64,000 nucleotides of DNA, taken from NCBI GenBank assembly GCA_033439265.1, contig JAVTVX010000013.1, positions 20,812,500 to 20,876,499 of the forward strand, given 5' to 3'. The stretch's first letter is position 1; each line of letters opens with the position of its first letter. Positions 29,535 through 64,000 of the stretch are shown piece by piece. This DNA comes from Dillenia suffruticosa. Taxonomy: Eukaryota; Streptophyta; Magnoliopsida; Dilleniales; Dilleniaceae. The position numbers and the translations under genes are program-made. A model generated the notes under the pieces. It saw only the letters and a list, made by a program, of their open reading frames with translations, had not been told where the DNA came from and made no database searches.

Positions 29535-29638
29535 CATATTCTAGGAGTCCCTGGGATCACATCTATTCAAAAGCAATAAAAAGCAACATTTTGCTCATTT
29601 TATTTCAAAAGAAGGGTGACCGGTGAGGTGCAGGTATT

Positions 29639-31351
29639 TTAGCACCCATTAATACAGAGAATCCAATGGTCAAAACAATGTAGCTGGTTATGGAGACAAC
29701 AAACGCAAATTTTTTGGAGACATGTTCCCAAATGACCCAAAAAAAAAAAAAATTTTTTTAAAACAACCCCAACCCAAAAAAATTTCCCCAAATAACCCGA
29801 ATTTGTCGCGTCTTAGAGACGCGACAACCCAAAGTCCAGAGAGAGAGAGAGAGGAGTCCGCCGGGGGGAAGGAGAGAGGGGAGGAGAGCGGCGGGGGGGA
29901 AGGAGAGAGAGGGGAGGACCGCGGCGGGGTGCGTAGGGGGAGGGATGGAGAGAGAGAGAGGGGGAGAGGGCCACGGAGGGGGGAGGGAGAGAGAGAGGGA
30001 GGGCCGCGGGGGGCCGAGGGGGAGGAGAGAGACAGCGGAGGGGGGAGGGAGAGAGAGAGGGAGGGGCCGCGGGGGGGGGGGGGGGAGGGGCGCGGGGGCG
30101 GAGGGGGGAGGGAGAGAGAGAGGGGAGAGGGCCGTGGAGGGGGGAGGGAGGGCCGCGGGTGGGGCGGAGGGCCGCGGGGAGCGGAGGGCCGCGGGGAGTG
30201 GAGGGGGAGGAGAGAGACACAGTGGAGGGGGGGAGGGAGAGAGAGAGGGAGGGGCCGCGGGGGGGAGGGCCGCGGGGGGTGGAGGGGGGGAGGGAGAGAG
30301 AGAGGGAGGGCCGCGGGTGGGCGGAGGGGCCGCGGGGGCGGAGGGGGAGCGGAGGGGGAGGAGAGAGACACAGTGGAGGGGGGAGGGAGAGAGAGAGAGG
30401 GAGGGCCGCGGGGGGCAGAGGGGGGGAGGGGGGGCGGAGGGCCGCGGGGGGAGCGGGGGGGGGGGAGGAGAGAGACACAGTGGAGGGGGGAGGGAGAGAG
30501 AGAGAGAGGGAGGGGTGCGGAGGGCCGCGCCCCTCCCTCTCTCTCTCTCCCTCCCCCCTCCACTGTGTCTCTCTCCCCCCCCCTCCCCCGCGGCCCTCCG
30601 CCCACCCCGCGGCCCTCCCTTTCTCTCTCCCTCCCCCCCCTCCACCCCCCGCGGCCCTCCCTCTCTCTCTCCCTCCCCCCCTCCACGGCTCTCTCCCCTC
30701 TCTCTCTCCCTCCCTCCCCCCCCTCCGCACCCCGCCGCGATCCTCCCCTCTCTCTCCTTCCCCCCGCCGCCCCCCCGCCGCGCTCCTCCCTCCCCCGCCG
30801 CTCTCCTCCCCTCTCTCCCTCCCCCCGCGGACTCCTCTCCCTCCCTCTCTCTCTCTCTCTCTCTCTCTGGACTTTGGGTTGTCGCGTCTCCAAAACGCGA
30901 TAAATTCGGGTTATTTGGGAAAAATTTTTTGGGTCGGGATTATTTTAAATTTTTTTTTTTTTGGGTCATTTGGGAATATGTCTTAATTTTTTTATCGCGC
31001 CTAGGACACTCCTTTGACAGAAAACATATATTAGCATTACATTGTACAAGCACAGGTGGTTGTGATGGTCCATTTATTAATTCAATTTTGCTTTTTTCAT
31101 CTTCTTGACACCTTCTTGACACGTTACCTATTTGTAATAATTAATAAAAAAAATTTAGTCAATGATAAATATTTTTAATAAAATATTACATTTATGAATT
31201 AAAAATAACACATTTTTTTATAATAATTAAAATTATATTATATATTGTACACACACTACAATTAAATAGAGATCATAATATTTTTACATTTGTAAAATAT
31301 TGCGAAGGTAACAAAGAAGAGAAGTGTGACCAGAAAGCTAATATTCTTCGT
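29639..31351 (-). pseudogene. ESF1/MEG-like peptide pseudogene (copy B), split by an inserted element
   Basis: Same design as the intact copies. Exon 1 is 31288-31351 (64 bases) and the exon 2 acceptor is at 31127. The start codon is ACG instead of ATG (31349-31351). Exon 2 reads INGPSQPP and then ECPRRDKK before being cut at about 30985 by a 1.27-kb inverted-repeat element. It resumes at 29716 with a CVCC core and runs to a stop at 29639-29641. A TATA-like box survives at 31447-31454. It has two independent lesions, start loss and insertion, so it is dead. Its neighbour to the right is aspartic protease 1. Confidence 0.75.
29717..30984. mobile_element. Foldback/Mutator-like MITE with a GA- and G-rich palindromic core
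   Basis: Terminal inverted repeats of roughly 130 bp: the left begins GAGACATGTTCCCAAATGACC and the right is its near reverse complement ending at 30984. Each arm carries a GTCGCGTCTC word and an AAAGTCCAGAGAGAG junction. Between them, about 1 kb is made of GGGGGGAGGGAGAGAGAG-type units on the left half (29830-30525) and the complementary CCCTCCCTCTCTC on the right half (30530-30870), so the whole element could fold into one hairpin. Flanks AATTTTTTG and AATTTTTTT suggest an 8-9 bp target duplication, as made by Mutator-like elements. It carries no transposase. Long Gly/Arg/Glu- or Pro/Ser-rich frames on both strands are composition artefacts. Confidence 0.7.
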
Positions 31352-31359
31352 AGCACTGG

Positions 31360-33009
31360 TTTGATCTATAAACAATTATATATCCATATTTTTTAGAACT
31401 TTTAAAAGCAATTCTATCTGATGATTTATATGAATGAAATTAAGAGTATTTATAAGATGGTTTGATGAGACTTGCAACTGATATAAATGAAAAATATTTA
31501 TAAGATAAGTTTGGGATTTAGGGATGAGAAACGATCAGTAGCTTTAATAAGTATAATAATAATAATAAAGTTGCCATAATTCCTTTTATAAGAGAAAAAA
31601 TTCATGCTTTTTTTTTTGAAACAAAAAAAAAACTATTTTTAAGAAAAAAAGAATTTATATGATAGAATTTCTCCTCGGTGAAAAGAAGCCGGTCAAACAG
31701 ACACTAAGTTTTATGAATTCAAAAGAGGTCACCATGAGAGGAGCTGTTTTCCTCATTCCACTTCCACTTGGAAGGTCACAGGGCATGTTGGGGGTGTTTT
31801 GACCGTTGACGTATCTAACGGTTAAGAAAGTGTTTGGTGACTCAGAATAGACGATGAGATCACAATTGACAATGAGTTATAAAAAAAAAGGTCATTAGCA
31901 CTCGACGATTTTTTTTTTTAAATATGTTATCCATTTTTCTTAATAAAAATATTCAAATAATTAAAAATTATTTATATTATTTTATCAAACTATCATTTTT
32001 TTCCTTTTTTTTGCTTTACATTAATTTTTAATTATTTAAATCTTTTTATTATAAATAATTTATGTAGTTAAAAAATTGTTTTTCTTATAAAGTCATTGAT
32101 GCTTGTGTGATTTACATTAATTTTTTTATAATATGTAATTAAATTAATTATTTTTTAAATTATTGATATAATATTTATTAATTTTATAATTTAATATGTA
32201 GTAATAACATGAAAAAAAAATATCTTAAAATATAAAACAGATTTAATTAGTAAAGAGTTGTACTTTTTGGTTAATTCTATACGTGAATAGTAGCCGTTAC
32301 CAGTTATACAACCAAACACTATTATCAACTAACAATAATTATTACTTATCAATCATTAGCTGAATTTTATTCGTTAAATTAAATATATTTAAATTAAGAC
32401 ATTAATATTTTAATTAAGGACAAGGATGATATCGATAATCAACCTTTGTATTGCTGAGACATTAATACAACTTAATTGTACTTTTACCCTTAAAAAGTTA
32501 GGTCGGGACTGTGCTAGGATTTTTTTTTTTCTTTTTACCCTTTGTATTTTTTTTCTTTTACCCTTAATTAAGGGGAGGCTCAAATTGTGAATAAACATAC
32601 ATCTTTTATTAGTTCCTAAAGACTGGTTTCCAACTTTCTCCAGATTTATTGTTTAGAGCAATGGGTCGGTTTTCTTGATCATTGTTAACCGGTCTCAATC
32701 AAATATATATATATAATATGCACAAGTACAAGCCTGACATTTTTGATTGATCAAGTTCTTATTGAAATGCCCTCCTTTTTTATTCCGATTTGGCAAAGGC
32801 CGCCATTTATGATCATTATTAACATCAACATTCATGATGAAGATTAGATCTTGGACGAGGACTAAATAAAAAACATACTATGATTCGAGGTTCCATGAAG
32901 AATCTTTTGGTGGTTGTGAAGGAACATCAACCACGTCAAGCATCATACTATACAATACGCCCGGCTCTCGTTTAAAAAAAAAGGGCCAGCCTAGCAAATA
33001 ACAGAAGAA
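31360..33009. other. AT-rich spacer of the array unit
   Basis: It parallels 45.7-47.5 kb. Near 32880-32960 the minus strand shows a short VPSQPP-containing remnant also seen near 47370-47450. No gene is supported. Confidence 0.5.
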
Positions 33010-36000
33010 CTATAAAAGCAAAAGATGAATAAAAACTGCAATGTGCACGATGAAAGACAGCTTCCCTTTCCTGGAACCGTTGGCCCTATGTGTTCTTCCA
33101 TTGTTGTTTTGGCCAATGGTAAGGTTGACCTGCACATGAGAGGAACCTGGGAATAGAAACATAGAAATCGTAAAAAAGGATTTAATTTTGAAAAAATAGA
33201 AAAAAGACGTCAAAGGCCAGGCTTGACTTGTTGACTTACAATTATAGCCTGCCCAACCAAGTCTTTGTTGAGCTAAATCATAAACAAAGACCCTGTCTTG
33301 CATGGCAAGATCTGCATGAGAGAATAATCAAAGACTTTGTTATTGCTCTAATTGCATAAAAGAACATATTTGACTATATTCCTTTTTGTACCTCAAAATA
33401 ACATACTGTTGTTGTTATAAAAGGGTTGCTCTAAAAGTTTTAGGTTGTAGCTAGTAATTTCTTTGTTAATAAAGCAATGGAAAAAAAAAAAAAAAAGAAA
33501 GAGTCTAGGATTTTACCTCCTAAAATAGTAATCCCTGTATCAGACCTCAGAATTCCAAGGCACCACGGATAACCAGAATCCTACGAGGAAAAATAATTAT
33601 CTGATCTTAAGATAGAACAAATGACATTTTTCAAGATATCTTGACATGCAAATGAAAACACTCACTACTGGGGGTACGAAGTAATCCTTTGCCGTTAAGA
33701 TCAAATTTGCTCCTCCCACAAAATTGAAACTAATTGCAGGGAAAATCTCGTTTATGCTGTTTCCAAAATTCAAACTATAATTTTAACTAGGGCACAACAT
33801 TTGGTAGCAAAAAATAAATATGTGGATGTTTAGTACTTGGTGGAAATTCGGTAACAACGTAGTCCTCCTAATAGAATTGGAGGCAGGGACGGGGGAGCAG
33901 CCGCAATTATCTGCATCATAACTATAATAATCAGCTTCATTATGCACATCAGATAAATGTATTGGACCTATGATCTTCCAATAAAACATAAATAGATTAA
34001 TCCTTCTTTCCAGTCCATCGAAGAACTTTTATAAGACTTGTTTTCTTTTATTTATTTATTTATTTATTTTTCCAATTGCATTTACTTAAGTGCAATTGAT
34101 AGTCTTCACTCTTCGCACAACTGCATGCATCAGGACTGGTGTTACACACTACATTGGTAGTTAGATCTTTTCTTCAGTTATACCTTCCGTCCCAACAATC
34201 CCATGCACCAAATACCTTTAGAATTCCTTCTTTTTTCCCCAAAGCTACTAAAGATATATTTGCGCTCCATTATATGGCACTATTTTCATGACAATTCACA
34301 AATAATCTTGTTTCTAATTAGGGTAATAGAACTACTAAATTGTTTGACCCCCATCCCCATGTATGGATCCACACTGACTTGGAAGAAGGTACACATGTAA
34401 TTCAATTTCACAGTGCATTGAGCCAATTAGACATGAATTTTGTGCATTGCAAACTTTCACCAAAGAAAAAAAAAAAACTTACAAGTTTGCGAACTGGATA
34501 GTAAGCTTCGCTGACAAGGTATATGAATGTTGTCCCTGAGTCCACTAAAGTACCTTGATTCATTGAAGTTGGAAATATGGCCGGATCAATAGGTAGAACT
34601 TGCCCATTAATAACAATTCTCTCAAGATTCAAATTATAAAATCCACTGAAAGGTTTATGCAGAAAAGATCAAACCATATTAGTCAACAACCTATTTCAAT
34701 TTACAAAGACCATCCAACATAATACAAAAGCAAGTTTATGTTAAAAGTTGAAAGTGACAAAAAGAAATTATCAGCTATAGTGGGGTTGGATGGTGAGCAA
34801 AACAATGCATCAAGAAGTTGGTCAACTTTTGCATGAAAGAAGGTAAATATTAACAGTAGACAAGTCACTTATAAACTACATGCGACTCCATTCATTTCAA
34901 ATGGGTAAAATGAAAAGGAAGGAAGGAAAGAAAGAAAGAAAGAGAGAAAGAAAAGGCAAAAAAAAAAAAATTAAAAAAGAAAGAGTACTTCATATCCCGG
35001 AGGAACCAACAAGGTTACTAGACATGGTTTAGAAGAACTATGAATTCAAGTATACACGTGCAAGCAAACATAAAAGACGTACTAGCAAATATCACAAAAT
35101 ACAATTCCAAAGACTAGAATAGAATATAAAATTTGCGAGTCTGCGGGTGCATGAGGATCCAATATCGGAAAATCTAATTTTTAATATAATTATTATAATG
35201 CTTCATACCAAAAAGAATACGTACCGTCCAGTGTCAAGTGGGCTGTAAACCTTATGTGGTGTCACAATCTCCCCAAAGACCAGGACTCCCCCACCAGCTC
35301 CCTCTCCTTTTAGACAATGGGAAAATACATCGGTGGTTATTCCCTGTGAAGATAGCTGCCCTCTCAGAGATAGATCCCCGGGTCCTAATCCGAGAATTCC
35401 ATCAACAGCCATAGCAGTATTTTTCAATGTCCCATATTGGCGGGTGCTACACCTATTTACAGCAATTTGAAAAGAAAAGGCAATAAGCAATAAATAAAAT
35501 GAAAACTTTAAATTGAAACTAATCATATTGTTGTATTAATCCTCAGCTCACTTCCCTAATTCTAAGCATGGATGGGAACTAATATTTCCCAAGAACTAAA
35601 TTTGATTATTATTATTATTATTACATAAATAGTGCATGAGAATGAGTGTTTGACCATGGATCAGCATGGCCTAAAAGACAAGCACAAATCAGAAAGACAA
35701 GAAACCAAAAACAAGAATAGTTACCCGAAAACAACTTGAGCTGATAAGTGAGTGACCGCATTCTCGAAAAACAAGTCCAATGATAGCTGATCATACAGAT
35801 AATTTCCTGATGTCCCACTGCCATCTGCATATTCCAATCTGTAACTGCAATGAGATAGAGCAGGGCACGTAGTGGCAGTTTGAGGACAAGTCTTGTCCAA
35901 ACAAGAGAGGTGTGAAACTGTAGATGATCTTCTCGTATCAAAAGAGTTGAGTACAATCTACAAATTCCAAAAGAAAGAAGGGGAGAAATCAAGTTTAATC

Positions 36001-36667
36001 TACAAAAATGAATTAAAAATTTTAGAATATTTGAATGTAGAAAAAAGAATCAAAACATACTCCAAGGTCACTTGATTGGGGGCAATTGATGCAAGTGCTA
36101 CAGGTCACCCATAAAACATCACTTCCGGTGTCAATCTGAACTGTGAGTTCTTGGGAAGGAGTGCCCAGTTTTACTTTGGTGTAGTATAAACTAAGCAAAT
36201 AAAAATTATCAATAATTTTAATCCTGAGTCATAAAATCCAATAATTGAACAAATGATTCCCCTATATGTTTTCTGTTTCTATCTAAATAAAAGTACAATA
36301 AGATTGATTCATCATGACAGTGGGAGCCTAGAGTTCGGCTTTGATGAACAAGAAGGTTAAAAATGAAAAATTTGTAAACAACCAGATAAATTAGTTTGAA
36401 AAAATTAAGATAAGGGTAATGATTGTACCCATCGATGGAGGAGCCGGAAAGTGGATATTCAATGATAGAATGGGCATGTCCACCTTGTTGCATGAATATT
36501 TGATGGTGTCGAGCTCTATCCCAAGCTATTAGTGAATTAACATCCACTTGTTTGTTCAGCGGAATCACACGCTTCAAATTGAATTGAAGAGATTGAGTAA
36601 CTACTATGAAGAAAGAGAAAATCAATATGGAATCGACAACAAAATTCAGACTCATTTTTGGCATCAT
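33010..36667 (-). CDS. Pepsin-family (A1) aspartic protease 1, GPI-anchor type
   Basis: Ten exons: 36429-36667, 36061-36190, 35725-35957, 35225-35452, 34483-34645, 33837-33910, 33666-33774, 33517-33580, 33240-33311, 33010-33146. All joins are GT-AG and in frame, total 482 aa. A signal peptide opens the protein ([13 protein letters not shown]). A pro-region is followed by [12 protein letters not shown], the first active site IDTGSDVLW in exon 2, paired Cys (CSTCINC), and the second active site [10 protein letters not shown] in exon 5. The end of the fold reads [18 protein letters not shown] Ser/Asn-rich spacer and a hydrophobic tail ([13 protein letters not shown]) suggest a GPI anchor. The nearest relatives I recall are Arabidopsis A36/A39-type proteases, GPI-anchored and active in pollen and ovule. 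It lies beside the peptide genes of the array. Both active-site Asp are present and no break is seen. Confidence 0.9.
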
Positions 36668-36712
36668 GAGAATTATCAAATTCTATTAAAATGACAAGAT
36701 ATTAATCGATAC

Positions 36713-36813
36713 TATATATATGGTTTTGAAAACCTTGCAAAAACACGTATGAGTATGAGAATCATCAAACTCTGTTACAATGATAAAATACTAATCGATA
36801 CTATTTATATGGG
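36713..36813 (-). promoter_or_regulatory. Duplicated core promoter of aspartic protease 1
   Basis: A TATATATA box lies at 36713-36720, about 50 bases before the ATG. A second block of near-identical sequence (ATGAG, ATCGATACTAT) lies about 89 bases further upstream with its own TATAAATA at 36803-36810. The same doubled arrangement is found before protease 2. A (GA)n tract follows upstream at 36829-36848. Confidence 0.5.
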
Positions 36814-36849
36814 AGGGACGGTGGGGGGAGGAGAGAGAGAGAGAGAGAG

Positions 36850-39120
36850 CCACTTTACCTCACTTCTAGGGTTTTTGCAATTTGAAGTAAAAGTAACCGT
36901 TTCTTTCAAATTTTTGTAACTCTCTCAACTGAGTATATACTTTTATCTAAACAATATATAAAGCCATCAACTTTTTGAAGCCTAGTTCTCTTTCTCTCTC
37001 TCTTTCACGCACTGTGGTTCAAAATTAGAACATATTCATAGCTTTCTTATTTCCAAATATTTATAGTATAAAATCTCTTCCACTTGCACAAATAATGTTA
37101 AAACTTTTGCTTATTTTGTTTCTGATACTCTTGTAAGCTTTCGCATAACTTTAAGAATAGTGGGTCACAACATTTTGACCGGAGGCAAACCAATGCAGAG
37201 GCCATAATATTTTTTTCTTCTTTATGCATGTTGTTCTTTTAAGTGACGCGTAAGAATGTCCACATGCACAAAAATGCAAACTTACCCAAACTAATCTTGA
37301 CAAGACTTTGCAACTTTTAAAAATATGATTACCGATTTGAACCATTGAATTATAGTGGATGAATCGGCCCTTCTTTTTTATTTTTTTAAAAGAAAAAACA
37401 AAATAGTTTAGTAAGTGGTCTTGAAAGGCATACAAGTTGTAATGTGAAGATAATCTTAGGTTATGGAATTTTAGTTGAGTGTAGGTGTAGCACAGTCATT
37501 TTTTAATTTATTCAAATATGAAAAAAATATTAAAATGACCTTATTATTATTATTATTAATTTAAAAACTATAGGAAACATATTTTGATTAATCTAAAAAG
37601 GTTCCGAATGATGCACTCAGAGAGAGAGGGGAGGGGAGGGGAGGGGAGGGGAGGGGAGGGTTCCAATTAGAATTGGTATACATTAATACTTCAAAGATTA
37701 GGCAATACAATTTACCTATAATAATTACATCCACTAACTAAAGAGATATTTCCTTTAATGTGAAATATCATTCTATTCCTACACTACTTCACTAATTTGG
37801 AAATGAAAATGAGTTGTAATGTATGTATGTGGTGCGTTGTATTTTGGCACTAAAGCTCCCAAGTTTTCAATTGAAACGGAACATCCTTTTCTTTTGGCAT
37901 TTTGATTGTGATTGATGCGGGACGTTCAACTTTCCCTCACACTCTCTTTTCTCGTCCTTCAATATTATTATTTTTTTATTACACCGATCAATATCTGAAT
38001 TCATATTATTATTAATCTGATTCGAAATTTACAGTGACCTATTTAAGGAGATTACTCTTCCAATATAATCTACTTTATACCCAAATTACGAGTCAAATTT
38101 GTGATCTTGATTAAAAAACCTAACATCATATTCTATTAGATCAACTGATCGATCCTTCAATATTATAATGCTCTCGTGACACTCTCTGTAATGTTTTATC
38201 TTTTATGGTGTTGTGACGAGAGAATATGCATGGCGGTCTACGTGGGGCCTGTAAAAATGGTTGTAGCTTTTTGTCGTTGATGCGAGTGCACTATTGGATG
38301 CTACGAAGATTAGTTTAATGTTTGCCTTCTTTTACCCAATTTGACTTTATTTTGCTGAGCTTATGAAAAAGAAGATTTGGTTCACCTCACTTTTTTTTTT
38401 GGGTGAACGATGATGCAAAACAACAAAGAAATATCTTGATAAGACATGGGGTATTTTGATTGCGGACCCAATGATATTGACAACTAAATATAACCTCCTT
38501 TTTTTTTCTTCATTTTTTCTAAAAATATTTTCCCTGAAGATTATTGGTGGCAATGTAGCCAACTTCGTTTTCTTTTCCTTGTTCACTTTAGTCATGTCCA
38601 CCTGATTATTAGTGCGTAACGAAGCTTTTGTTGATGAGCACGTCTTCGTCTTACCAACACAAGTTAAAGGAAGACGAAATATAATAATGTAAGCTAGTAA
38701 ATAATATCTTATATCGTTATATACAAAATATACTAATTGTAAACTTTCTCCTAATTTATTATTAAAAGCACCCAAAGATTTTGTAGGGCCGGTTCACCGG
38801 TCTACGATTCACGTCTGATGGTCATTGTTGCACAGGCACGAGCCAACATTTTTGAATGAGATCAAGTTGTATTAAAATGCATGCTCATTTATTCTGGTTA
38901 AAGGGTATTATATCAAAAACTCGGCCAAGGGATTGTGTCCTATATATATATTCAAAACTATAATTTAATTAATTCGATTTTAATATTGTCGGGCTTAATT
39001 TAAGAAAAATTTTCTCAACATAATTTTTTTCATTTTTAAATTTTGAATTCAAAATTAAATTAAGAATAAAAAATTTAAAATCTTAAGCACTAAGTTAACT
39101 ATTCATTTGTATTAACAAAT
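36850..39120. other. Protease upstream flank and conserved non-coding block
   Basis: No gene seen. It contains a (GGGGA)n tract (37617-37660) and the array-wide block beginning near 38.2 kb with GGCGGTCTACGTGG. A 142-aa minus-strand frame at 38347-38775 is not preserved in the sister blocks, so I do not call it a gene. Confidence 0.55.
37617..37660. repeat. GA/GGGGA simple repeat upstream of protease 1
   Basis: GA units pass into about seven GGGGA units. The equivalent place upstream of protease 2 (51617-51701) holds pure GA repeats. Confidence 0.9.
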
Positions 39121-39124
39121 ATGT

Positions 39125-39245
39125 TGATCAGGCTTTGAAAAGCATCATTTGTGGCTTCCCACCAGAAGAATTTGTTGGTGGTTGCGAAGGCTTTGAATAC
39201 TACTCATATCATATTCAGCCTCATATCCAAAAATCACAAGCAAGC
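39125..39245 (-). pseudogene. VPSQPP-type remnant, unit 1
   Basis: The minus strand reads a YEAEYDMSSIQSL block as in the sister at 43400-43582, but the following VPSQPP part is out of frame here. It is a short remnant of unknown parent, possibly an old peptide-gene exon 2. Confidence 0.35.
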
Positions 39246-39289
39246 CAACTTTGTTCGTTAACCCAAAAAAAAAGGGCAGCAAACGAAAT

Positions 39290-40158
39290 TTTCAATTAAT
39301 AAATTTGAGAAAAATCTGAAATTACTTCCACATTCTTGGGGCCATAACAGGCTCTTCCTTCATCTTTCAACAAGGTTGCCTGAAACTCCTTAAAAATCCT
39401 AATTTCAATTGCAGTGCTCGTGTCTTTAATCGCGTTGATTATGTTCGAATCGGAAATTACTTCTTTAAGACTCTTTTCATTTCCAGACGTTGCTTTTGCG
39501 AGGATGATTTTGGATTTGTTGTCTTCGATTTGATTCAATTTGAGAGAAAGCATGTGACTTGAACTCGTCTTTGATTGATCAAGGACTCGCGATTATGGCA
39601 CAACGAATTAGGTTAAAGTCGACATGTTGTAGGAATTCAATCTCGACTTTCTCGAAGAACTTTCTAGATCCTTGATTTTGGAGGCTAGTTTCGTCTTTTC
39701 CTTTCTGATCAAGAATAGGTTTGCCAAAATGTCTTGCATTTGCAGAATCGCTAGATCTGGAGCGGCGGACTTGTTCTCGCCATCAAGGACGACTGATATT
39801 GAATCTGGATCCCATCCCTCTTCGTCAAATCAAACAGTTTGTTAATTTCCAAATCGAGCGTGTGGAAAATCCAGAAGAAACATGCTCTATTTCATTGACT
39901 GTTTTTCCTCGAATATGAAACTCCGATCAATTTTTGCTAAAATCGACGGTAGGAGATTCCGATCTGGAGGTTAATTTTGACGCTAGATGTGATGTTTTTG
40001 CCGGAATTAATCTGGTGGTCGGCAGCGTCAAGGTCTCCGACGGAGACTAGATTGTGTAGAAGCCATAAATCATCAGCGTCTTTCATAATGATTTTGACCG
40101 TTCCAGGTTGATTTTGTGCGAGTTTTTCTCTCTCCGCACCTTCATTATTATAGAACAT
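39290..40158 (-). pseudogene. PELOTA pseudogene 1 (most complete)
   Basis: PELOTA rescues stalled ribosomes with HBS1 in no-go mRNA decay. Minus-strand segments match in order. N-terminal domain: PGTVKIIMKDADDLWLLHNL, about 40050-40130. Central region: FFEKVEIEFLQHVDFNLIRC near 39640, then IIASP, followed by a stop codon. C-terminal half: KIILAKATSGNEKSLKEVI and RACYGPKNVEV, 39310-39500. Several stops and frame changes interrupt it and the third domain is missing. No introns are visible over about 870 bases, which fits a retrocopy or an intronless parent. The call rests on remembered Pelota sequence. Confidence 0.75.
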
Positions 40159-40159
40159 T

Positions 40160-40960: not shown

Positions 40961-40963
40961 CTA

Positions 40964-41415: not shown

Positions 41416-41510
41416 AGCACTAACTCGGTTTGAGAGTAATTATGTATATTTTTTTATAACTTTTGAAAGTAGATCTATCTGTGATTTATTGAATACTATA
41501 GAGAGCATTT

Positions 41511-41517
41511 ATTTATA
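41511..41517 (-). promoter_or_regulatory. TATA box of peptide copy C
   Basis: TATAAAT about 100 bases before the ATG, within a segment conserved upstream of all copies. Confidence 0.45.
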
Positions 41518-53250: not shown

Positions 53251-53264
53251 GGTATTAACAAATA

Positions 53265-53405
53265 TACTGATTGAGCTTTGAACAAGCACCATTTGTGGCT
53301 TCCTATCAGAAGAAATTGTTGGCGGTTGTGAAGGAACATAGGAAAGGCTTTGAATACTACTCATATCATATTCAGCCTCACATCCAAAAATCACAGGCAA
53401 GACAA
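53265..53405 (-). pseudogene. VPSQPP-type remnant, unit 3
   Basis: Minus-strand reading CEAEYDMSSIQSLSYV, then PSQPPTISSDRKPQMVLVQ, parallel to 43400-43582. The frame is open over the shared part, with no start or Cys domain. Confidence 0.3.
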
Positions 53406-53449
53406 CCTTTGTTCATTAAAAAAAAAAAGGAAAAAAGAAAAACCAAAAT

Positions 53450-54225: not shown

Positions 54226-54801
54226 ATAAAAAATTAACCTTAAAAATCTTTTATCGTATCAAAAGTAGCTCTACTAATCTTTTACAGCAAATCAATGAAG
54301 AAAAATAACTTTGTTTATTTATGAGATCCATGTTTTTTTTTTAAGTTTTATTCTATGATGGAACGATCTTCATGTGAGAGCTAATTGTGTTGATTTTTAT
54401 TTTGAAAGCAACTGTCAAGCTACAAACAACAAAGAATGAAAAAAATATATATATACAAAAGTTTTGTGTAAATCATCCCTTTTTATTTATTTCAAATTCT
54501 AGATAGCAAGCTATTCCATTAGGATTAATGGAATATCATCCTAACAAAAACCCTATTCCTTCCTATCACCTTTTTAATTGATCTCATATCATTATTCTTT
54601 TTTTTTTAATTAGTATGCTGGTTTATTTAAATCATATATTTTAAATACAAAATATGACGGTTTACTTAAATAGGTATGAAAATCAATCACATATCATATT
54701 TATTAAACCAACAAAGTAGCAACATCATTAAATGACTAAATTTGAGAAAAATCATGAATTTTGCTCATTTATTTCTAAAGAAGGGTAAGTGATGAGGTCT
54801 A

Positions 54802-55210
54802 TCAACAACCAGCTTGACATGCTTCGAAAGTGTCATAACAAAGAGTTGGCCTATGGGTACAACAAACGCAACCTTTTCGAAAGCCTTTCGGACAATTGAG
54901 TGTCGCAAAACAATGGAGAATAACACCTCGTTTGTTATCCGGTGCAAAGAGTGGTGGTTGTGATGGTCCGCTTGCCAAATTGATTATGTTTTCATCATCA
55001 TTTTTGGCCCCCTCACCTATTTGTATTAATTAAAAAAAAGAGAAAGAAAAGTTAGTGGTTGAAGGATTCATTTCTTATGATAATTAAAATTAAATAACAT
55101 GTTACACACTCGCACTACAATTAAATAGAGATCAGAGTATTCTTACATTTGCAAAATATTGCGAAGGTAACAAAAATGAAAATTGCAACCAGAAGCTTAA
55201 TGTTCTTCAT
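54802..55210 (-). CDS. Secreted cysteine-rich peptide, ESF1/MEG-like (copy E)
   Basis: Two exons, 55147-55210 and 54802-55016, give 92 aa. The signal peptide is MKNIKLLVAIFIFVTFAIFC. Exon 2 is CEGAKNDDENIINLASG, then PSQPPLFAPDNKRG, then HCFATLNCPKGF, GCVCC, PTLCYDTFEACQAGCC and the stop. It is nearly identical to copies D and F, including about 600 bases upstream (D and E share long identical stretches at 45.3-46.0 and 55.1-55.8 kb). That makes D/E the most recent duplication or a gene-conversion pair. TATA-like box at 55301-55308. Confidence 0.65.
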
Positions 55211-55300
55211 AATACCGACTCGGTTTGAGAATAATTATGTATATTTTTTTGTAACGTTTGAAAGTAGTTCTCTCAGTGATTTATTAAATACAATAAAGAG

Positions 55301-55308
55301 TATTTATA
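55301..55308 (-). promoter_or_regulatory. TATA box of peptide copy E
   Basis: TATAAATA about 95 bases before the ATG, conserved with copies C, D and F. Confidence 0.45.
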
Positions 55309-55309
55309 A

Positions 55310-58020
55310 CATGATTTGATATGATTTATAATTGACATAAATGGAAAGCATTTATAAGAATACTTGGTGGGATTGAAGGAGGAGAAGAGATGGTGGATTT
55401 AATCAGTGTAATAGTAAAGGTGCCATATTTCCTTTTATAAGAGAAAAATATTCAGGCTTTTATTTGGGATGTAACATTATTTGCCTTTGTACACTTCACA
55501 TTCTACCATTCTCTTTGTAAAAATTTAATGCATTGATGTGTACAAATACAATTTTAAACTTTTATCGAGATTTTTAGAATTTTTTCCTTTATTAAAACTG
55601 ATTCCTTGATTTCTATTTTTTTTTCCCTTTCTTCTTCGTTTCCCTTTTGAGGATGTTATAAATCATAAAAAATTTTAATGTTTACAAAAATTAAAATGAT
55701 TATTGAACCAGTGAAGTTATTGGATGGTTCACTTGTCCGTCGGTGGTGACATCTTTTGAGTGATAAAATATTATAAAATATAATATATAGTCATATAACG
55801 TTATATATGAGTACATTTGTCATATAATCGTTATAAAATATGTCGTTACCAACATATAAAATTTATTACATAAATAACTCTAATTCAAGTTTTCTAAACG
55901 TTTCATTTATCATCAAAGTGTCTAAAAGTCTGCACTTGAAGCAAATTTTGTATTTTGAAATTACAAAAATCTTTTTACTCCAATGTAGCCAAAAAAAAAA
56001 AAAAAAAAAAAAAAAACATAGTACTTAGCCCTACGATGAAAACACACACACACACACACACACGTTCTCCTGCAATGACGACCAAATCAACCTTTTTGAT
56101 ACCGATTTCGATTACTAGCGTTGTCTTTATTAATATGACCGTACAAATATTAGGGTTTGTTAACATAACATCGAAGATTGTACAGGTCCCCAAGAGTGTA
56201 AAACAAAAAAAAAAAATCAAAGATTGTACAGGTGAAGGTTATTCCACTTAGAAGGCCACAGGACCCTCTCCCTGGAACTGGAAGGCGGAGGCCTTGACCG
56301 GAAACAATTTGGGCCTCTTAATCACCATCCAATGCAATTTTTTCACGTGCCTTGATGGTAACACCATTTCAAAACTTTTGGAACCCATCTCCATTCGGTT
56401 CAGTTCTGGAGTTAACGCCTTTGTTTCTTGGGTTGGAGTTGAATCCATTTCATATTACATTTATGCGTATATTATGTATAAATAGATACTGAATAATACA
56501 TGTGTTTTTCTTCTTTTTTTTTTGTTACCTTCTTATTTGCCTAAAACAAAATTAGTTTTGATAGGAATGACTAAAAATAAACAAGAAAAATTATAACTAA
56601 AAATCCAATAATTGATAAACAAATGATTCCCCTATATGTTTTTTGCTTCCATCTAAATAAACCTAGGTTATGGAATTTTGGTCGAATGTAGGTGTAGCAT
56701 AGTCATTTCTCAATTTATTCAAATAAGAAAAAAATATTAAAATGACCTTATTATTATTATTAATCTAAAACTATAGGAAACATATTTTGATTAATCTAAA
56801 AAGGTACAGAATGATGCTCGGAGAGAGAGATGGAGAGAGAGGTTGTTTCTTGTTTTCCGCTGGGCAGATTATAAGAGGGGATTTTGGTTTATAGTAAAAT
56901 ATACTTTCCAAATTTAAAAGAATAATTTGGAAATAGATGGGGTTAAGGGAAGGGATCCAATTAGAATTGGTTCAATACATTAATACTTCAAAGATTAGGC
57001 AAATACAATTTACATATAATAATTACATCCACTAGCTAAAGAGATATTTCCTTTAATGCGAAACATCATCCTATTCCTACACTACACATTATCTCTTCAC
57101 TAATTTGGAAATAAAAATGAGCTGTATGTATGTATGTGGTGCTTTGTATTTTCGCACTAAAGCTCTCAAGTTTTCAATTGAAACGGAATATCCTTTTCTT
57201 TTGGCATTTTGATTGTGATTGATGCGGGACATTCAACTTTCCCTCACACTCTCTCTTTTCTCGTCCTTCAATATTATAGTGCTTTCGTGTCGCTCTCTTA
57301 CTGGTGTAATGTTTTATCTTTTATGGTGTTGTGTTGAGAGAAGATGCATGGCGGTCTACGTGGAGCCTGTAAATGGGTTAAATAATGGTTGTAGCTTTTT
57401 GTTGTTGATGCGAGTGCACTATTGGAAGCCAGGAAGATTAGTCTAGTGTTTGCCTTCTTTTATTATTTTGCTTAGCTTGTGAAAAAGTGGATTTGGCTCA
57501 CTTCACTTTGATTCTTGATAGAAAAGTAAGAATAAGACATGGGGTATTTTGATTGCGGACCCAATGATATTGACAACTAAATATAACCTCCTTTTTGTTT
57601 TTCTTTTTTCTAAAAATATTTTCCCTAAGATTATTGGTGGCAATGCAGCCATTTCGTTTTCTTTTCCTTGTTCACATATGTCCACTTGATTATTAGTGCG
57701 TAACCATGCTTTTGTCGATGAGCACGTCTCCATCTTACCAACACAAGTTAAAGGTAGATGAAATATAATAATGTAAGCTAGTTTATATACTAATTTTAAA
57801 CTTTTTCTTAATTTATTATTAAAAACACTGAAAGATTTTGGAGGATTGGTTCATTCGTCTACGATTCACATCTGATGGTCATTGTTGCACAGGCAAGAGC
57901 CAACATTTTTGAATGAGATCAAGTTGTATTAAAATGCATCCTCATTTATTCAAGTTAAAGGTTATTATGTCGAAAAGTTGGTCAAGGCATTGTGCCCTAC
58001 ATTAATAAATATGATTTTTC
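55310..58020. other. Spacer of unit 3-4 with the protease missing
   Basis: It continues like the flank of copy D to about 55.85 kb, then holds a poly-A run (55990-56016), a (CA)n tract (56041-56063) and about 400 bases I cannot place. At 56.59 kb it jumps into protease intron 1 sequence and then the protease upstream flank. No intact gene. Confidence 0.55.
56590..56665 (-). pseudogene. Scar of a deleted third aspartic protease
   Basis: About 70 bases (AATAATTGATAAACAAATGATTC and on) match intron 1 of protease 2 (50225-50290). At about 56660 the match switches to sequence that lies some 1.2 kb upstream of the protease (51450 onward). All protease exons are gone. Confidence 0.65.
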
Positions 58021-58029
58021 TTAACGATA

Positions 58030-58215
58030 TTAACAAATATGTTGATCGGGCTTTGAACAAGCACCATTTGTAGCTTCCTATGAGAAGAAACTTTTGGGGG
58101 TTGTGAAGGAACATGGGAAAAGGCTTTGAATACTATTCATATCATATTCAGCCTCATATTCTGCAGAAACCTAATCATATTCAGCCTCATATCCAAAAAT
58201 CACAGGCAAGACAAC
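58030..58215 (-). pseudogene. VPSQPP-type remnant, unit 4
   Basis: The same remnant as at 43400-43582 but with a frame shift in the middle, and a small local duplication of the TCATATTCAGCCTCATAT word (58140-58190). Confidence 0.3.
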
Positions 58216-58249
58216 CTTTGCTCATTAAAAAAAAAAAAAAAAAAAATGC

Positions 58250-58735
58250 AGCAAACCAAATTTTCAATAAATAAATTTGAGCAAAATCTGAAATTACTTC
58301 CACGTTCTTGGGTCCATAACAGGCTCTTCCTTCATCTTTCAACATGGTTGTCTGAAACTCCTCAAAAATCCTAATTTCAATTGCAGTGCTCGTGTCTTTC
58401 ATTGCATTGATTATGTTCGAATCTGAAATTACTTCTTTAAGGGTCTTTTTGTTTCCGGACGTTGCTTTTATGAGGATCATTTTTGATTTGTTGTCTTAGA
58501 TTTGCTTCAAGAAAGCATGTGACTTGAACTCGTCTTTGATTGATCAAGGACTTGCAATTATGGCGAAGCGAATTAGGTTAAAGTTGACGTGCTTTTGGAA
58601 TTCAATCGTGACTTGAACTCGTCTTTGATTTCTTGAATTCTTGCATTGGCAGAATCGCTAGATCTGGAGCGGCGGACTTGTTCTTGCCAACACGGACAGT
58701 TGAGATTGAATCTGGATCCCAACCCTCTTCGTCAA
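58250..58735 (-). pseudogene. PELOTA pseudogene 4 (N-terminal part deleted)
   Basis: The minus strand keeps the C-terminal and central parts (ILIKATSGNKKTLKEVISDS, RACYGPKNVEV) but stops at about 58735. There it joins directly to spacer that in other units lies beyond the N-terminal domain. A private deletion of roughly 500 bases explains this. Confidence 0.7.
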
Positions 58736-59014
58736 CCGGATTATTTTGTTTATTGTTTTTTTTAAAGTTTTGTTCTATGATGGAACAATCTTCATGTGAG
58801 AGTTTATCGTGTTGATTTTTATTTTGAAAATAACTGCCAAGCTACAAACAACAAAGAATGACAATAATATATATACAGAAGTTTTGTGTAAATCTTCCCT
58901 TTTATTTATTACAAATTCTAGATAGCAAGCCATTCCATTTGGATTAATGGAATACCATCCTAACAAAAATCCTATTCCTTCCTCTCAACTTTTTAATTGA
59001 TCTCATATCATAAT

Positions 59015-59024
59015 TGTAATACCC

Positions 59025-59065
<41 letters not shown>

Positions 59066-61705
59066 ACAAAATTAGGGCTTAAAGCCCAATTTTCTCTCTT
59101 TCTTTCCCCTCTCTTCTCTCTTCTCTCTCTCTCTTCTCCTCTCTCCTTTTCTTCTCTCTTCTCCCGATCCCCCGCCGCCGCGCCTCTCTCTTTTGCTGCC
59201 ATCCTCCGCCGCGAGCGACCGCCCGAATCAGCTGCACGATCTTCCTCCCACGAGTGCGCCGTGGCCGTCGCTGCTCCAATCCTCTGCGAGCGCGAGACTG
59301 CAGCGCGATCTCCAATCCTCAACGAGCGCGAGCACAGCCGCGCGATCATCTCCGCGCGAGCGCTAGCGCCACCGCGCAGTCTTCCTCGTGAGCGCGCGAG
59401 CGCTGCAGCGCGACCCTCCCTCACGTGAGCACGCGATCGCTCGAGCACGCCGTAGCACGAGCCCCAGCGCGCCCCAGCGCGTCCCAGCGCGCTCCAGCGC
59501 CGAGCCAGCGCCCGAGTCAGCGCGAGCCCAGCACGCGAGACCAACGCGCGAGCCCAGCGCCAGCCCAGCACCAGCCCAGTGTGAGCAGCCCGCGAGCAGC
59601 GCTCGATCAGCGCACGAGCAGCGCGCGACACCCAGAGCGCGACCCCAGCGCACCCTTGCGCGCCTCTGCCCGAGCCCCTGCGCACCTCCAGCACGAGCGC
59701 AAGCGCTCCAGCGTGCGACCCACTGCGTGAGTGCTCGATCCAGCTCGCGAGTGCGACCCTAGCCACTGCGGCCCAGTCCGGCCCGCGGCCCACCAGGCCC
59801 ACCAGGCCCGCCAGCCCATCAGCCCGCGGCCCACGGCCCGTGACAGTCCGTGAGCCTCTGCGAAGGTAAATGACTCTAAGTTTCGATTTTTCGCACTTGG
59901 ATTTCGAATCTCTTTAGTAATTGGACTTAAATTGTTCGCAATTGTTTCAAATTTGGAAACATTCAGGTTTTAGACCAAACCGACGGGCGAACGAAAGCTA
60001 AATCTGAGATCCGAAGAATCCTAGGTGAGAGAAATGAAATCTCTTTAACCCTTGAATAAACTTTGTCAAATTAGGTAGCATTAGTTGATTTGTTTATAAA
60101 TTGAGGAATTTAGGGTTCGTACGAATTAAGAAAAAAAAACGATAAACCCTGAAATAGTCGGAAATTGATAAAAATCGTGATGATTGATTAGGTTGGCTAT
60201 TTTGGTGACTCGATTGAGGGGCGCCTTGTTTTACGTATTTTGGTATTATTGGGGAGTGCGCTACCTTCCCCAAAACTGTGAGTGGGATTTATTTCAATAC
60301 TTTTGTTTAATATGTAAATCCTGTTTTACAACATTTTGATAATGAGCATGATTTGTCGTATGTTGGAAATGTTTTGACCGGTTTTAAAATTGACTTTTGT
60401 GAACCGTTGGAGTGTCCAAAAAAACTGTATTGAATTATGAAATTATGCATCCATGTGGTTGAAATGTATAATGTGCCATTTTATACTCTATGTTGCATCG
60501 GTTTATGAACCTAACTTTGGCACAATTTGATATGATATTGATTGGCCTTGAGGGCTTTGATATGTATTGTTCCGTAGCTACGAAGGACACCGTGAGAGGC
60601 GCTTTGGTGGCGTCCGGATATGCCTAGGCCTGGGGTATCCCACGAGTTGTCGTGATTTGATTATCTACACGGTACTAGCCAGGTTGAACCCGAAAGGGGG
60701 AGGATTTGGATTTGGATTGGATATCCTCTCCAAGTCTAGCACCTGGACGAGGTTCGTCGCCAACGCCGGGGTAGAGAGCACTTTAAAGAAATTTGCATAT
60801 AACACCCCCGGTGCGCCTGTCATAGGTCGCGGTAGACCTCTGCCAGGACATTTTCGGCTGGCAGCTCTATGATTTTAATGACAGTGCTTTGGATGCATAT
60901 TTGACTTGAAAATGCGTGAAATGATATATTGTTGAAATAAAGAGCATGATGATTTGAAATATGATTTATATACTTATGTTTTGACACTCCAGTTTCACAC
61001 TCCATATTTGATGACTGCATTGACCCACTCACTCACTGAGTATTCTTTCCCGAGTACTCACCCCTCATTTCCCTTTTGTTTCAGAGATAGTATTTGACAA
61101 GGAGTGTCGCTTTTAGGACGCTCAGTTTCTTTGGGAGATCAGGCCTGGACTTGAGGAATTATTGTATATTTCCGCTGCAAATTTGTATTGGTGATGTATT
61201 TGTATTCTGAGGTCTATAGATGACCATTTTTATAATTCTGGGATGACTGTATAAATATGGACATTTAAATTGTGGAACTCTCATGTCACTGCATGACATT
61301 GCATTGAGGCATTTCTTTTTCGTTGCGTCTGTATTTGGGAATGTGTCATGTCTTAGAATTGTCCTCTAGGATCGCTCGGTGCCTCCTCTAAATCACAGGA
61401 GGGGCGACTGGCGGCTGTCCATGCCTTTGACGGGGGCATGGCAGTAGAGGTCTGTGGTTAGGACTGTGGAGAATTGTTTGTTAGCCTTGCGTTGCCCTGG
61501 ATTGTGCAGTAGGATGATCTGATTTGTTGTTGAGGATAATATATGCATTTTGAGGCCGGGATGACCCCTTTTGGACAGATAACAGGTTTATTTTAATATG
61601 GGAGACCTCCGATATATGGGGAGGTTCTGCCCGATTTTCTGTAAAAATACAGCCGGCATCCAAGGTAACGGGCGGCTGCTCACGATCCCGGGTCGGGGCG
61701 TGACA
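59015..61705. mobile_element. Solo LTR, 2.69 kb, probably Ty3/gypsy (Tekay/Del-like)
   Basis: It begins TGTAATACCC and ends GGGGCGTGACA, with perfect 5-bp direct repeats ATAAT on both sides (59010-59014 and 61706-61710). The sister units have the uninterrupted target (CATAATTCTTTT, 40.79 kb), so the insertion is certain. There is no internal region, primer site or second LTR, so it is a solo LTR left by recombination. Its length and the TGTAACACCC-type start suit long-LTR gypsy chromoviruses; the lineage is a guess. It contains a poly-A run, a GC-rich GCGCGAGC-rich stretch (59170-59860), and one chance frame of 101 codons. Age: younger than the array duplication, since only one unit has it. 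Confidence 0.85.
59170..59860. repeat. GC-rich CAGCGCGAGC repeat island inside the solo LTR
   Basis: Irregular repeats of CCAGCGC, GCGCGAGC and CGAGCAGC make up about 700 bases. The several long overlapping Ala/Arg/Ser frames here, on both strands, come from this composition. Confidence 0.75.
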
Positions 61706-61915
61706 ATAATTCTTTTTTTTTAAATAGTATGCTGGTTTATTTAAATCATATATTTTAAATACAAAATATGCCGGTTTACTTAAATAGGTATGAAAATCAA
61801 ACACATATCATATTTATTAAACCAACAAAGTAGCAACATCATTAAATGACTAAATTTGAGCAAAATCATGAACTTGGCTCATTTATTTCCAAAGAAGAGT
61901 GAGTGATGAGGTCTA

Positions 61916-62319
61916 TCAACAACCAGCTTGACATGCTTCGAAAGTGTCATAACAAAGAGTTGGCCTATGGGTACAACAAACGCAACCTTTTCGAAAGCCT
62001 CTCGGACAATTGAGTGTCGCAAAACAATGGAGAATAACACCTCGTTTGTTATCCGGTGCAAAGAGTGGTGGTTGTGATGGTCCACTTGCCAAATTGATCA
62101 TGTTTTCATCATCATTTTTGGCCCCCTCACCTATTTGTAATAATAAAAAAGAGGGAAAAGTTAATGGTTGAAGGACTCATTTCTTATGATAATTAAAATT
62201 AAATAACATATTACACACTCACATTACAATTAAATAGAGATGAGAGTATTCTTACATTTGTAAAATATTGCGAAGGTAACAAAAACGAAAATTGCAACCA
62301 GAAGCTTAATGTTCTTCAT
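61916..62319 (-). CDS. Secreted cysteine-rich peptide, ESF1/MEG-like (copy F)
   Basis: Two exons, 62256-62319 and 61916-62130, give 92 aa. The signal peptide is MKNIKLLVAIFVFVTFAIFY. Exon 2 is CEGAKNDDENMINLASG, then PSQPPLFAPDNKRG, then HCFATLNCPRGF, GCVCC, PTLCYDTFEACQAGCC and the stop. It shares exon lengths and intron position with copies C-E. The solo LTR sits about 200 bases beyond its 3' end. TATA-like box at 62410-62417. Nothing is broken, so I expect it to be functional if expressed. Confidence 0.65.
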
Positions 62320-62409
62320 AACTCCAGCTCGGTTTGAGAATAATTATGTATATTTTTTTGTAATTTTTGAAAGTAGTTCTGTTAGTGATTTATTAAATAC
62401 AATAAAGAG

Positions 62410-62417
62410 TATTTATA
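62410..62417 (-). promoter_or_regulatory. TATA box of peptide copy F
   Basis: TATAAATA about 95 bases before the ATG, conserved with copies C-E. Confidence 0.45.
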
Positions 62418-63129
62418 ACATGATTTGATATGATCTATAATTGACATAAATGGAAAATATTTATAAGAATACTTGGTGGGATTGAAGGAGGAGAAGAGAT
62501 GGTGGATTTAATCAGTGTAATAGTAAAGGTGCCATATTTCCTTTTATAAGAGAAAAATATTCAGGCTTTTATTTGGGATGTAACATAATTTGCCTTTGTA
62601 GACTCCACATCTACCATTCTCTTTGTAAAAATTTAATGCATTGATGTATACAAATACAATTTTAAACTTTTATTGAGATTTTTAGAACTTTCTCCTTTAT
62701 TTAAACAGATGCCTTGATTTCTATTTTTTTCCCCCTTTCTTCATCATTTCCCTTTTGAGGATGCTATGAATCATAAAAAATTTTAATGTTTACAAAAATT
62801 AAAATGATAATTGAACCAGTGAAGTTATTGGATGGTTCAATTTTCGGTCGGTGGTCACGTCTTGAGTGATAAAATATTATAAAATATAATATATAATCAT
62901 ATAACATTATATATGAGTACATTTGTCATATAATCGTTATAAAATATGTCGTTACCAACATATAAAATTTATTACATAAATAACTCTAATTCAGTATTAA
63001 AATTTTATCTATAAAATTTATTTTTTAAATAACATCAGAAAAAATTGATTTTTTGCCATGCATATCCAAGCAGCTATAGAAAGACAGCACCACGACCTCC
63101 GTGAATTCAGGTTGTTTTGACTCCGATTC

Positions 63130-63405
63130 CTATCAAGAGTGTGGAAACATCCAGAAGAAACATGCTCTGTTTCGTTGATTGTTTTTCCTCGAACATGAAT
63201 CTCCGATGAATTTTTTGCTAAAATTCACAGAGGGAGATTCAAATGTACACGTGAGATGTGATATTTCTGTCAGAATTAATCTGGATTTTCTATGGAGACT
63301 ACATTGTATAAAAGCCATAAATCATCAGCATCTTGCGGAATGATTTTGACTGTTCCAGTTTGATTTGGCGCGAGTTTTTCTCTCTCCACACCTTCATTAT
63401 TATGG
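63130..63405 (-). pseudogene. PELOTA N-terminal fragment 2
   Basis: The minus strand reads TGTVKIIPQDADDLWLLYN, later HVRGKTINETEHVSSGCFHTL, matching the N-terminal domain in order, with stops between. The C-terminal half is absent. The spacer on its right (63.66-63.78 kb) matches the one between PELOTA and the peptide gene elsewhere, so another unit may follow outside the window. Confidence 0.65.
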
Positions 63406-64000
63406 AAAAACAACCTTCAAAATCTTTTATTGTATCAAAAGCAGTCCAACTAACCTTATTTGAGAGATCTGAGAAACAACCGGATCTTTTTTTTTTTTTT
63501 TAAGTTTTATTCTACGTTCTAATGATCTTCATGAGGGAGTTTTTGTGTTGATTTTCATTTGGAAAACAACTGCCCATCTATAAACAACAAGTGTCATGAA
63601 AAAAATGAAAATTATTGAAAATTTATGTAAATCTTCAGTTTCTAATCATTTGAAATTCTTTCAAAAGCTATTTTGCAGACATTAGATAGCAAGCCTTTCC
63701 ATTTGGATAAATGGAATATTGTCCTAACAAAAGCCTGATTCCTTCCTATCACCTTTTAAATTGATCTCATATTATAATTATTTTTTTCAGAAAAATAATT
63801 AGTACCTAAGATTCAATTAGATGTACAAAAAAGGAGTATTACCAACCTTTTGCGTTTGTTGATTGTTAATTAAAAAAAGGAGAAAAAATCATGTACAAAT
63901 ATAATTAACCAATGATCTGACTTGAGTTATAATAATGGTGATATCAAAAATTTATTCTGGGGGCAATATCCAAGAAATAAGTAGAGAAGAAAATGCAAAA
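63406..64000. other. Array spacer to the window edge
   Basis: AT-rich. Its middle part (about 63680-63780) matches the conserved spacer at 40.69-40.80 kb. No gene. Confidence 0.5.

What the first reader, a model, noticed from the sequence alone, without database searches (positions are those of the whole stretch)
29600..64000. Co-duplicated cassette of secreted Cys-rich peptides and GPI-anchored aspartic proteases
Seen: at least four tandem units combine a two-exon Cys-rich secreted peptide gene with an A1 aspartic protease (two intact, one deleted) and a PELOTA pseudogene. Known: ESF1/MEG peptides and A36/A39-type proteases both act in plant reproductive tissue. Inferred: repeated duplication of a peptide and a membrane-anchored protease together could reflect a working pair (processing, shedding or turnover of the peptide), or simply hitch-hiking. 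I know of no described system of this kind.
Basis: partly seen in the sequence, partly recalled or inferred. Interest (0 to 1): 0.75.

Follow-up and report, generated by a model that had tools for sequence, protein, structure and literature searches.

The report
Conserved peptide-protease gene cluster in plant
In this plant genome, fast-evolving genes for small secreted peptides repeatedly sit beside genes for one kind of probably membrane-anchored protease, an arrangement that seems older than a large chromosome-block duplication; whether the two work together is unknown.

Summary
The window carries four modules of intact peptide gene and decayed PELOTA copy, two of them with an intact protease, plus two broken peptide copies. 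The peptides are two-exon, secreted and 8-Cys; the proteases have ten exons, signal peptide, DTG/DSG and a GPI-type tail. A unit of 40-42 kb holding the array recurs just downstream (99.1-99.3% in the two main blocks, gapless junction). The same pair, same order and orientation, lies in a paralogous block on C35, fixed by three flanking genes, so the pairing very likely predates that block duplication (protease dS about 0.25). Genome-wide, 7 of 10 peptide clusters (80 of 85 hits kept) contain or lie within 50 kb of an A36-type protease; random placement gives 0.08. Proteases are constrained (dN/dS 0.43); intact peptides evolve near neutrality but keep eight cysteines. Pfam Meg matches are all below its cut-off. 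Direct processing is untested, and the pair is not one-to-one: two of four modules lack the protease, the C35 protease has a frameshift, and C21 and C34 hold many more peptides than proteases. I read it as an old, persistent mixed cluster, probably sharing reproductive expression, not a proven enzyme-substrate pair.

The parts
26143..26604 (-). divergent relative of the peptide gene (exon 1 MKNISLLIVLFIFAVSAYFYK, exon 2 with 8-Cys domain)
29642..31351 (-). degenerate peptide copy: ACG where the others have ATG, exon 2 split by an insertion; its twin at 71.2 kb also has ACG but an unsplit exon 2 with 8 Cys
29718..30986 (.). 1.27-kb GA/CT-rich insertion with inverted terminal similarity (29718-30137 against 30525-30983), absent from the second copy of the array
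33010..36664 (-). aspartic protease A (A1, 10 exons, open model: signal peptide, DTG and DSG, GPI-type tail)
39265..40098 (-). decayed PELOTA copy (module 4)
40964..41415 (-). intact peptide gene p41 (2 exons)
42277..42384 (-). truncated peptide exon 2, next to a PELOTA fragment (42137-42214)
43600..44370 (-). decayed PELOTA copy (module 3; protease absent from this module)
45034..45444 (-). intact peptide gene p45, 2.06 kb 3' of protease B, same strand
47500..50654 (-). aspartic protease B (A1, 10 exons, 478 aa, open model)
53424..54176 (-). decayed PELOTA copy (module 2)
54802..55210 (-). intact peptide gene p55
56654..57277 (-). remnant of the protease 5' flank; no protease coding match here (module 1)
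58190..58605 (-). decayed PELOTA copy (module 1)
61916..62319 (-). intact peptide gene p62
27312..64000 (.). part inside the window of a unit (27312-69149) that recurs at 69153-109281 downstream

Best explanation
This is an old mixed cluster of rapidly evolving MEG/ESF1/PCP-B-like secreted 8-Cys peptide genes and A36-type, probably GPI-anchored aspartic protease genes, with a PELOTA-derived passenger. Shown: the two gene types are linked far beyond chance in this genome, the array has been amplified by tandem duplication, most recently as one 40-42-kb unit, the proteases are under purifying selection, and intact peptides change at near-neutral rates while their eight cysteines stay. Best read from shared position: the protease-peptide adjacency existed before the C13/C35 block duplication. 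Inferred: both are expressed in reproductive tissue; the peptide acts as a secreted ligand and the protease at the plasma membrane of the same tissue; the linkage persists through inheritance of the old adjacency and shared regulation of the neighbourhood. If the protease acts on the peptides it does so in trans, one serving many, not as an obligate one-to-one partner.
For: Array and gene models. On C35 a protease ends 1.45 kb before a peptide ATG, same strand; in the window protease B ends 2.06 kb before p45. Paralogous block fixed by SRPK (96%), threonine-dehydratase-like (93%) and CACTIN (98%) in collinear order. Protease dS C35-A 0.249, A-B 0.218. Linkage: 7 of 10 peptide clusters contain or lie within 50 kb of an A36-type protease, mean 0.08 and at most 2 in 50,000 random placements; 0 of 9 clusters of the earlier count for 56 other A1 loci up to 200 kb. 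Linked proteases fall in at least three supported clades. Constraint: protease A-B dN/dS 0.43, bootstrap 0.31-0.58; 8 of 8 Cys kept between p45 and the C35:4603 peptide with 34 of 70 residues identical, P=0.0019. Reproductive roles of relatives, from passages only: A36/A39 (PMC9114714, PMC6726743), ESF1 and PCP-B (PMC5215366), Meg1 (PMC4236715).
Against: No expression data, so reproductive expression is carried over from relatives. Pfam Meg matches are all under the cut-off, and the window's p45, p26 and the 71-kb copy give none. 16 of 23 A36-type protease clusters and 3 of 10 peptide clusters are unlinked. Linked clusters may share one origin, so they are not independent; one of the seven (C12) consists of a peptide that has lost cysteines and protease exons on both strands. 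The peptide tree is mostly unresolved, so co-divergence with the proteases was not tested. Peptide dN/dS near 1 fits relaxed constraint as well as diversification.
Confidence: 0.6

Rival explanations
1. Enzyme-substrate pair: the GPI-anchored protease trims or inactivates the linked peptides at the cell surface, for example at the hydrophobic stretch before the GPSQPP motif of the propeptide (NII(N/D)L in C13 and C35, KMLDL in C21), and linkage keeps matched alleles together.
For: Linkage in at least three protease clades. Proteases constrained beside fast-evolving peptides. GPSQPP recurs in peptides from C13, C35 and C21. A36/A39 mutants are defective in pollen and in micropylar guidance (PMC9114714 passage).
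Against: Protease absent from 2 of 4 modules with an intact peptide; frameshift in exon 3 of the C35 protease beside an open peptide gene; protease A's 3' neighbour is broken; many more peptides than proteases on C21 and C34; a KR pair in the propeptide of several members would suit subtilase-type processing as well (recalled).
Confidence: 0.2
2. Pure hitch-hiking: one chance adjacency was copied by tandem and block duplication; the peptides and proteases share neither tissue nor pathway.
For: Tandem duplication is frequent here and also copied a dead PELOTA gene several times. All linked clusters may descend from one region. In an older paralogous stretch on C10 an A36-type protease stands near SRPK and threonine dehydratase and the roughly 3.7 kb examined 3' of it hold no 8-Cys motif.
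Against: Linkage is seen in at least three protease clades and on five contigs, while the PELOTA copies in C13 decayed. Relatives of both families act in reproduction according to the passages cited.
Confidence: 0.35
3. The second copy of the array, and so part of the apparent expansion, is an assembly artefact (unpurged haplotype).
For: Substitution divergence of the two main blocks, 163 of 37,981 aligned bases (0.43%), is in the range of heterozygosity in trees (recalled).
Against: No N in the 264 kb examined; the copies abut without a gap at 69.15 kb; they differ by a 1.27-kb insertion and a segment of 95% identity.
Confidence: 0.2

Closest known systems
Meg (Maternally expressed gene) family of maize, Pfam PF24153
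   Same: locally duplicated, two coding exons with one intron, cysteine-rich, possible positive selection (PMC4236715 passages); profile matches that end at the same C-terminal positions, 87 or 88 of 88
   Different: all scores below the Pfam cut-off of 27 bits; no linked protease is mentioned in the passages seen
ESF1 / PCP-B peptides of Arabidopsis
   Same: 8 Cys in the mature peptide and rapid divergence around a conserved Cys motif (PMC5215366 passages); the low-confidence model has three strands and a helix, the elements named in that paper
   Different: no solved chain of this family was matched; whether Arabidopsis genes lie near A36-type proteases was not tested (I recall that they do not)
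A36/A39 GPI-anchored aspartic proteases (A1 group II, subgroup II-D)
   Same: TAXi_N, Asp and TAXi_C domains, 9 introns against a group II mean of 8.53 (PMC9937552 passage), signal peptide, hydrophobic C-terminal tail
   Different: arrayed in tandem next to peptide genes; placement inside II-D not tested for lack of Arabidopsis sequences
Maize Ga1 locus
   Same: seven linked genes of three types that act on pollen tube growth (PMC9349285 passages)
   Different: includes pectin methylesterases, no protease in the passages seen; function shown there, not here

Membership tests
MEG/ESF1/PCP-B peptides | eight cysteines with a C-x-C-C core in the mature peptide | tested here: met
   motif found in p26, p41, p45, p55, p62 and the 71-kb copy, in the downstream twins of p41, p45, p55 and p62, in the 130-kb peptide and in the C35 and C34 peptides fetched; the C12 and C13:7.61 relatives have lost Cys
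MEG/ESF1/PCP-B peptides | two coding exons, signal peptide in exon 1 | tested here: met
   (signal peptide judged by eye); two-exon structure of Meg1 from PMC4236715 passage
MEG/ESF1/PCP-B peptides | profile match to Pfam Meg above its cut-off | tested here: not met
   7 of 9 relatives match at E 3.3e-5 to 0.49, none reaching 27 bits; p45 no match; genome-wide 4 matches at E up to 1, none over the cut-off. Filed as resembling, not as a member of PF24153
A36-type A1 aspartic protease | A1 domains with two catalytic Asp motifs (DTG, DSG) | tested here: met
   (TAXi_N 4.4e-40, Asp 3.3e-31, TAXi_C 3.7e-21); motifs read
A36-type A1 aspartic protease | intron-rich gene (group II) | tested here: met
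   10 exons; group mean from PMC9937552 passage
A36-type A1 aspartic protease | GPI anchor | tested here: inconclusive
   hydrophobic C-terminal tail after small residues, read by eye; no predictor available
A36-type A1 aspartic protease | phylogenetic placement with At5g36260/At1g65240 | not testable with these tools
   no Arabidopsis sequences held
PELOTA | eRF1 domain 2 (PF03464) | tested here: met
   pieces of the 43-44-kb copy, joined with X: Pfam eRF1_2 2.8e-7, PDB Pelota chain 5lzw E 1.6e-9; genome search finds C13:20856292 and its twin
PELOTA | eRF1 domain 3 (PF03465) | tested here: not met
   no match in the C13 array; present at C35:4551172 and in part at C35:4615184. The C13 copies are remnants. 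Domain 1 was not searched

The most novel reading that the evidence does not exclude
A linked ligand-protease locus: a membrane-anchored aspartic protease and its own fast-evolving peptide substrates are kept together on several chromosomes, a two-component reproductive recognition or turnover system that can duplicate as a unit.
Probability: 0.17. Interest if true: 0.85.

Novelty: new variant of a known kind. Interest (0 to 1): 0.56.

Why it matters
The substrates of A36/A39-type proteases and the processing enzymes of ESF1/MEG/PCP-B peptides are, as far as I recall, open questions in plant reproduction. A genomic pairing that seems to have outlived a block duplication names concrete candidate pairs to test, and the peptide arrays (85 hits kept) are a clear case of rapid turnover in a family of reproductive type.

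Tried and rejected
Solved structures: no ESF1 or MEG chain matched, only a weak LURE 1.2 match (E 0.044) and one that looks like chance (E 1.9). AlphaFold of p45 exon 2: mean pLDDT 55.5, too weak for a fold search, so none was run. Rfam in 29600-64000: 0 matches at gathering scores. Strict co-duplication of peptide and protease rejected: 2 of 4 modules lack the protease, and the stretch with p45 (44560-46105) is 97.9% identical to that with p55 while the protease coding sequences are 89% identical.

Counting rule. The first linkage count had 9 clusters, weak hits included, 6 linked. The final count used hits (10 clusters, 7 linked). Dropped as weak: C19:2288867 (E 0.62), C24:19041022 (0.41), C13:21013515 (0.81), C13:20842138 (3.9, second half of a split exon). 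Kept although weak: C13:20843487 (1.9, positional copy at 31 kb) and C35:4637019 (1.9, 8-Cys motif seen). The 33 protease loci were picked by hand from the 107 matches (150 of 207 candidates scored), and the 56 control loci by hand (126 of 163 scored), so both are lower bounds and depend on my sorting. In the tree I had labelled C21:2.203 linked and C34:6.043 unlinked; by the 50-kb rule it is the other way round. The supported clades do not depend on the labels.
Full report
Setting. The window is G000:C13:20812500-20876499 of a 596-Mb genome in 37 contigs, a plant by its genes; the species was not identified.

Anatomy. Self-comparison gives a dense set of direct repeats between 31 and 64 kb. 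On the minus strand, read 5' to 3', the order is: peptide p62, PELOTA remnant, protease 5' flank only; peptide p55, PELOTA remnant, protease B; peptide p45, PELOTA remnant, no protease; truncated peptide at 42.3 kb; peptide p41, PELOTA remnant, protease A; degenerate peptide at 31 kb. Protease B is followed by p45 after 2.06 kb and protease A by the degenerate peptide after 1.66 kb, same strand. The peptide gene has exon 1 with a signal peptide (MKNIKLLVAIFIFVTFVIFCK in p45) and exon 2 with the propeptide and eight cysteines; four copies are open. The proteases have ten exons, a signal peptide, DTG and DSG motifs and a hydrophobic C-terminal tail of GPI type. Pfam gives TAXi_N, Asp and TAXi_C. 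PELOTA pieces from the 43-44-kb copy match a Pelota chain in the PDB (E 1.6e-9); the four main remnants each carry a stop.

The array is doubled. Window 27312-69149 recurs at 69153-109281. The two main blocks are 99.28% and 99.08% identical, with 163 substitutions in 37,981 aligned bases; a shorter stretch near 28-29 kb is 95% identical. There is no N in the 264 kb examined, and the copies abut. The four intact peptides have the same coding sequence as their twins, protease B has the same protein, protease A differs by three non-synonymous changes. This looks like a young tandem duplication; an unpurged haplotype is less likely but not excluded.

Linkage elsewhere. A peptide query from the window, a divergent peptide from 130 kb and a C34 peptide together give 85 hits on C13, C35, C34, C21 and C12 after the weak ones named under Tried and rejected were dropped. 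The protease query gives 33 A36-type loci in 23 clusters, as I sorted them. 7 of 10 peptide clusters, with 80 of 85 hits, contain such a protease or lie within 50 kb of one; 50,000 random placements of the same cluster lengths gave a mean of 0.08 and never more than 2. As a control, 56 loci of other A1 proteases are near 0 of the 9 clusters of the earlier count, even at 200 kb. The random model treats clusters as independent, which related clusters are not, and some clusters are long (0.4 Mb), so that 'linked' there means tens of kilobases. Conversely 16 of 23 protease clusters have no peptide near, and the linked C12 pair looks decayed.

The C35 copy. At C35:4596161-4601456 lies a protease about 84% identical in nucleotides to A and B over 419-420 codons compared, with a one-base deletion in exon 3 relative to A and B, followed on the same strand by a peptide gene with ATG at 4602909. 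SRPK, threonine-dehydratase-like and CACTIN genes lie in collinear order on C13 and C35 at 93-98% identity, so this is a duplicated block, and the pair is best read as older than it (protease dS 0.249). PELOTA-like sequence is also present on C35, at 4.551 Mb in an open frame of 361 aa and at 4.615 Mb, so the passenger probably predates the duplication too. An older paralogous stretch on C10 has SRPK and threonine dehydratase near an A36-type protease; about 3.7 kb examined 3' of that gene held no 8-Cys motif. On C13 itself a protease fragment at 126.27 kb is followed by a Meg-like peptide at 129.9-130.3 kb on the plus strand.

Protease clades. A tree of exon 4 from 23 loci (77 columns) puts linked proteases in at least three well-supported clades. 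The alignment is short, and 10 of 20 inner branches are open. A tree of 17 peptides is mostly unresolved, so co-divergence of the two families was not tested.

Selection. Protease A against B: dS 0.218, dN 0.094, ratio 0.43 (bootstrap 0.31-0.58); C35 against A and B 0.62 and 0.59. Divergence is 0.14 in the introns of A and B, and 0.06-0.13 among the PELOTA remnants. Peptides: ratios of 0.98 to 1.45 between p41, p45, p55 and p62, with wide intervals, and 0.39 to 1.17 in exon 2 across more distant pairs, two of which, both with p26, have intervals below 1. All eight cysteines are kept between p45 and the C35:4603 peptide although only 34 of 70 residues are identical (P 0.0019). So the intact peptides look alive but fast, the proteases alive and slower.

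Identity of the peptide. The window's p45 and p26 and the 71-kb copy match no Pfam family. Of nine relatives, seven match Pfam Meg below its cut-off, best 3.3e-5, and one of them also BAP; the 130-kb peptide matches Meg at 0.0026. With two exons and the 8-Cys motif this makes a MEG/ESF1/PCP-B-like peptide the best reading, by resemblance, not by a passed family test.

Mechanism. Shown: linkage beyond chance, repeated amplification, constraint on the protease, fast but cysteine-preserving evolution of the intact peptides. Inferred from relatives: reproductive expression (A36/A39: PMC9114714, PMC6726743; ESF1 and PCP-B: PMC5215366; Meg: PMC4236715; passages only). I favour an inherited neighbourhood with shared expression. 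A direct protease-peptide relation is possible, but nothing here requires it; modules without a protease and the surplus of peptides on C21 and C34 argue that it is not one-to-one.

Novelty. Searches for ESF1 with aspartic protease terms, protease with cysteine-rich peptide clusters and ESF expansion listed no paper whose title or shown abstract describes such a mixed cluster; only open PMC papers were searched, and only passages of a few were read.

Noticed in passing
G000:C21:2063478-2117834: Sixteen peptide exon hits with the same score at about 3610-bp spacing, all minus strand: it looks like a young, homogeneous tandem array of a cysteine-rich peptide gene.
   Followed up: partly
G000:C35:4550905-4551465: PELOTA-like open frame of 361 aa (eRF1 domain 2 in part, domain 3) beside the C35 peptides; its C13 counterparts are decayed.
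   Followed up: partly
window 29718-30986: GA/CT-rich insertion with inverted terminal similarity, inside a degenerate peptide exon; absent from the second copy of the array.
   Followed up: no
C13, 126.2-130.3 kb in window coordinates (outside the window): Protease fragment followed by a Meg-like two-exon peptide on the plus strand.
   Followed up: partly
window 14598-16277: A direct repeat of about 480 bp at 85% identity (14598-15074 and 15789-16277) in a region of uncharacterised open frames.
   Followed up: no
window 59.0-61.7 kb: Relatively GC-rich stretch without counterpart in the other modules of the window, possibly an insertion that split module 1.
   Followed up: no
G000:C34:6008579-6727521: Twenty-two peptide hits over 0.72 Mb with only two A36-type proteases found: a peptide-dominated expansion.
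   Followed up: partly
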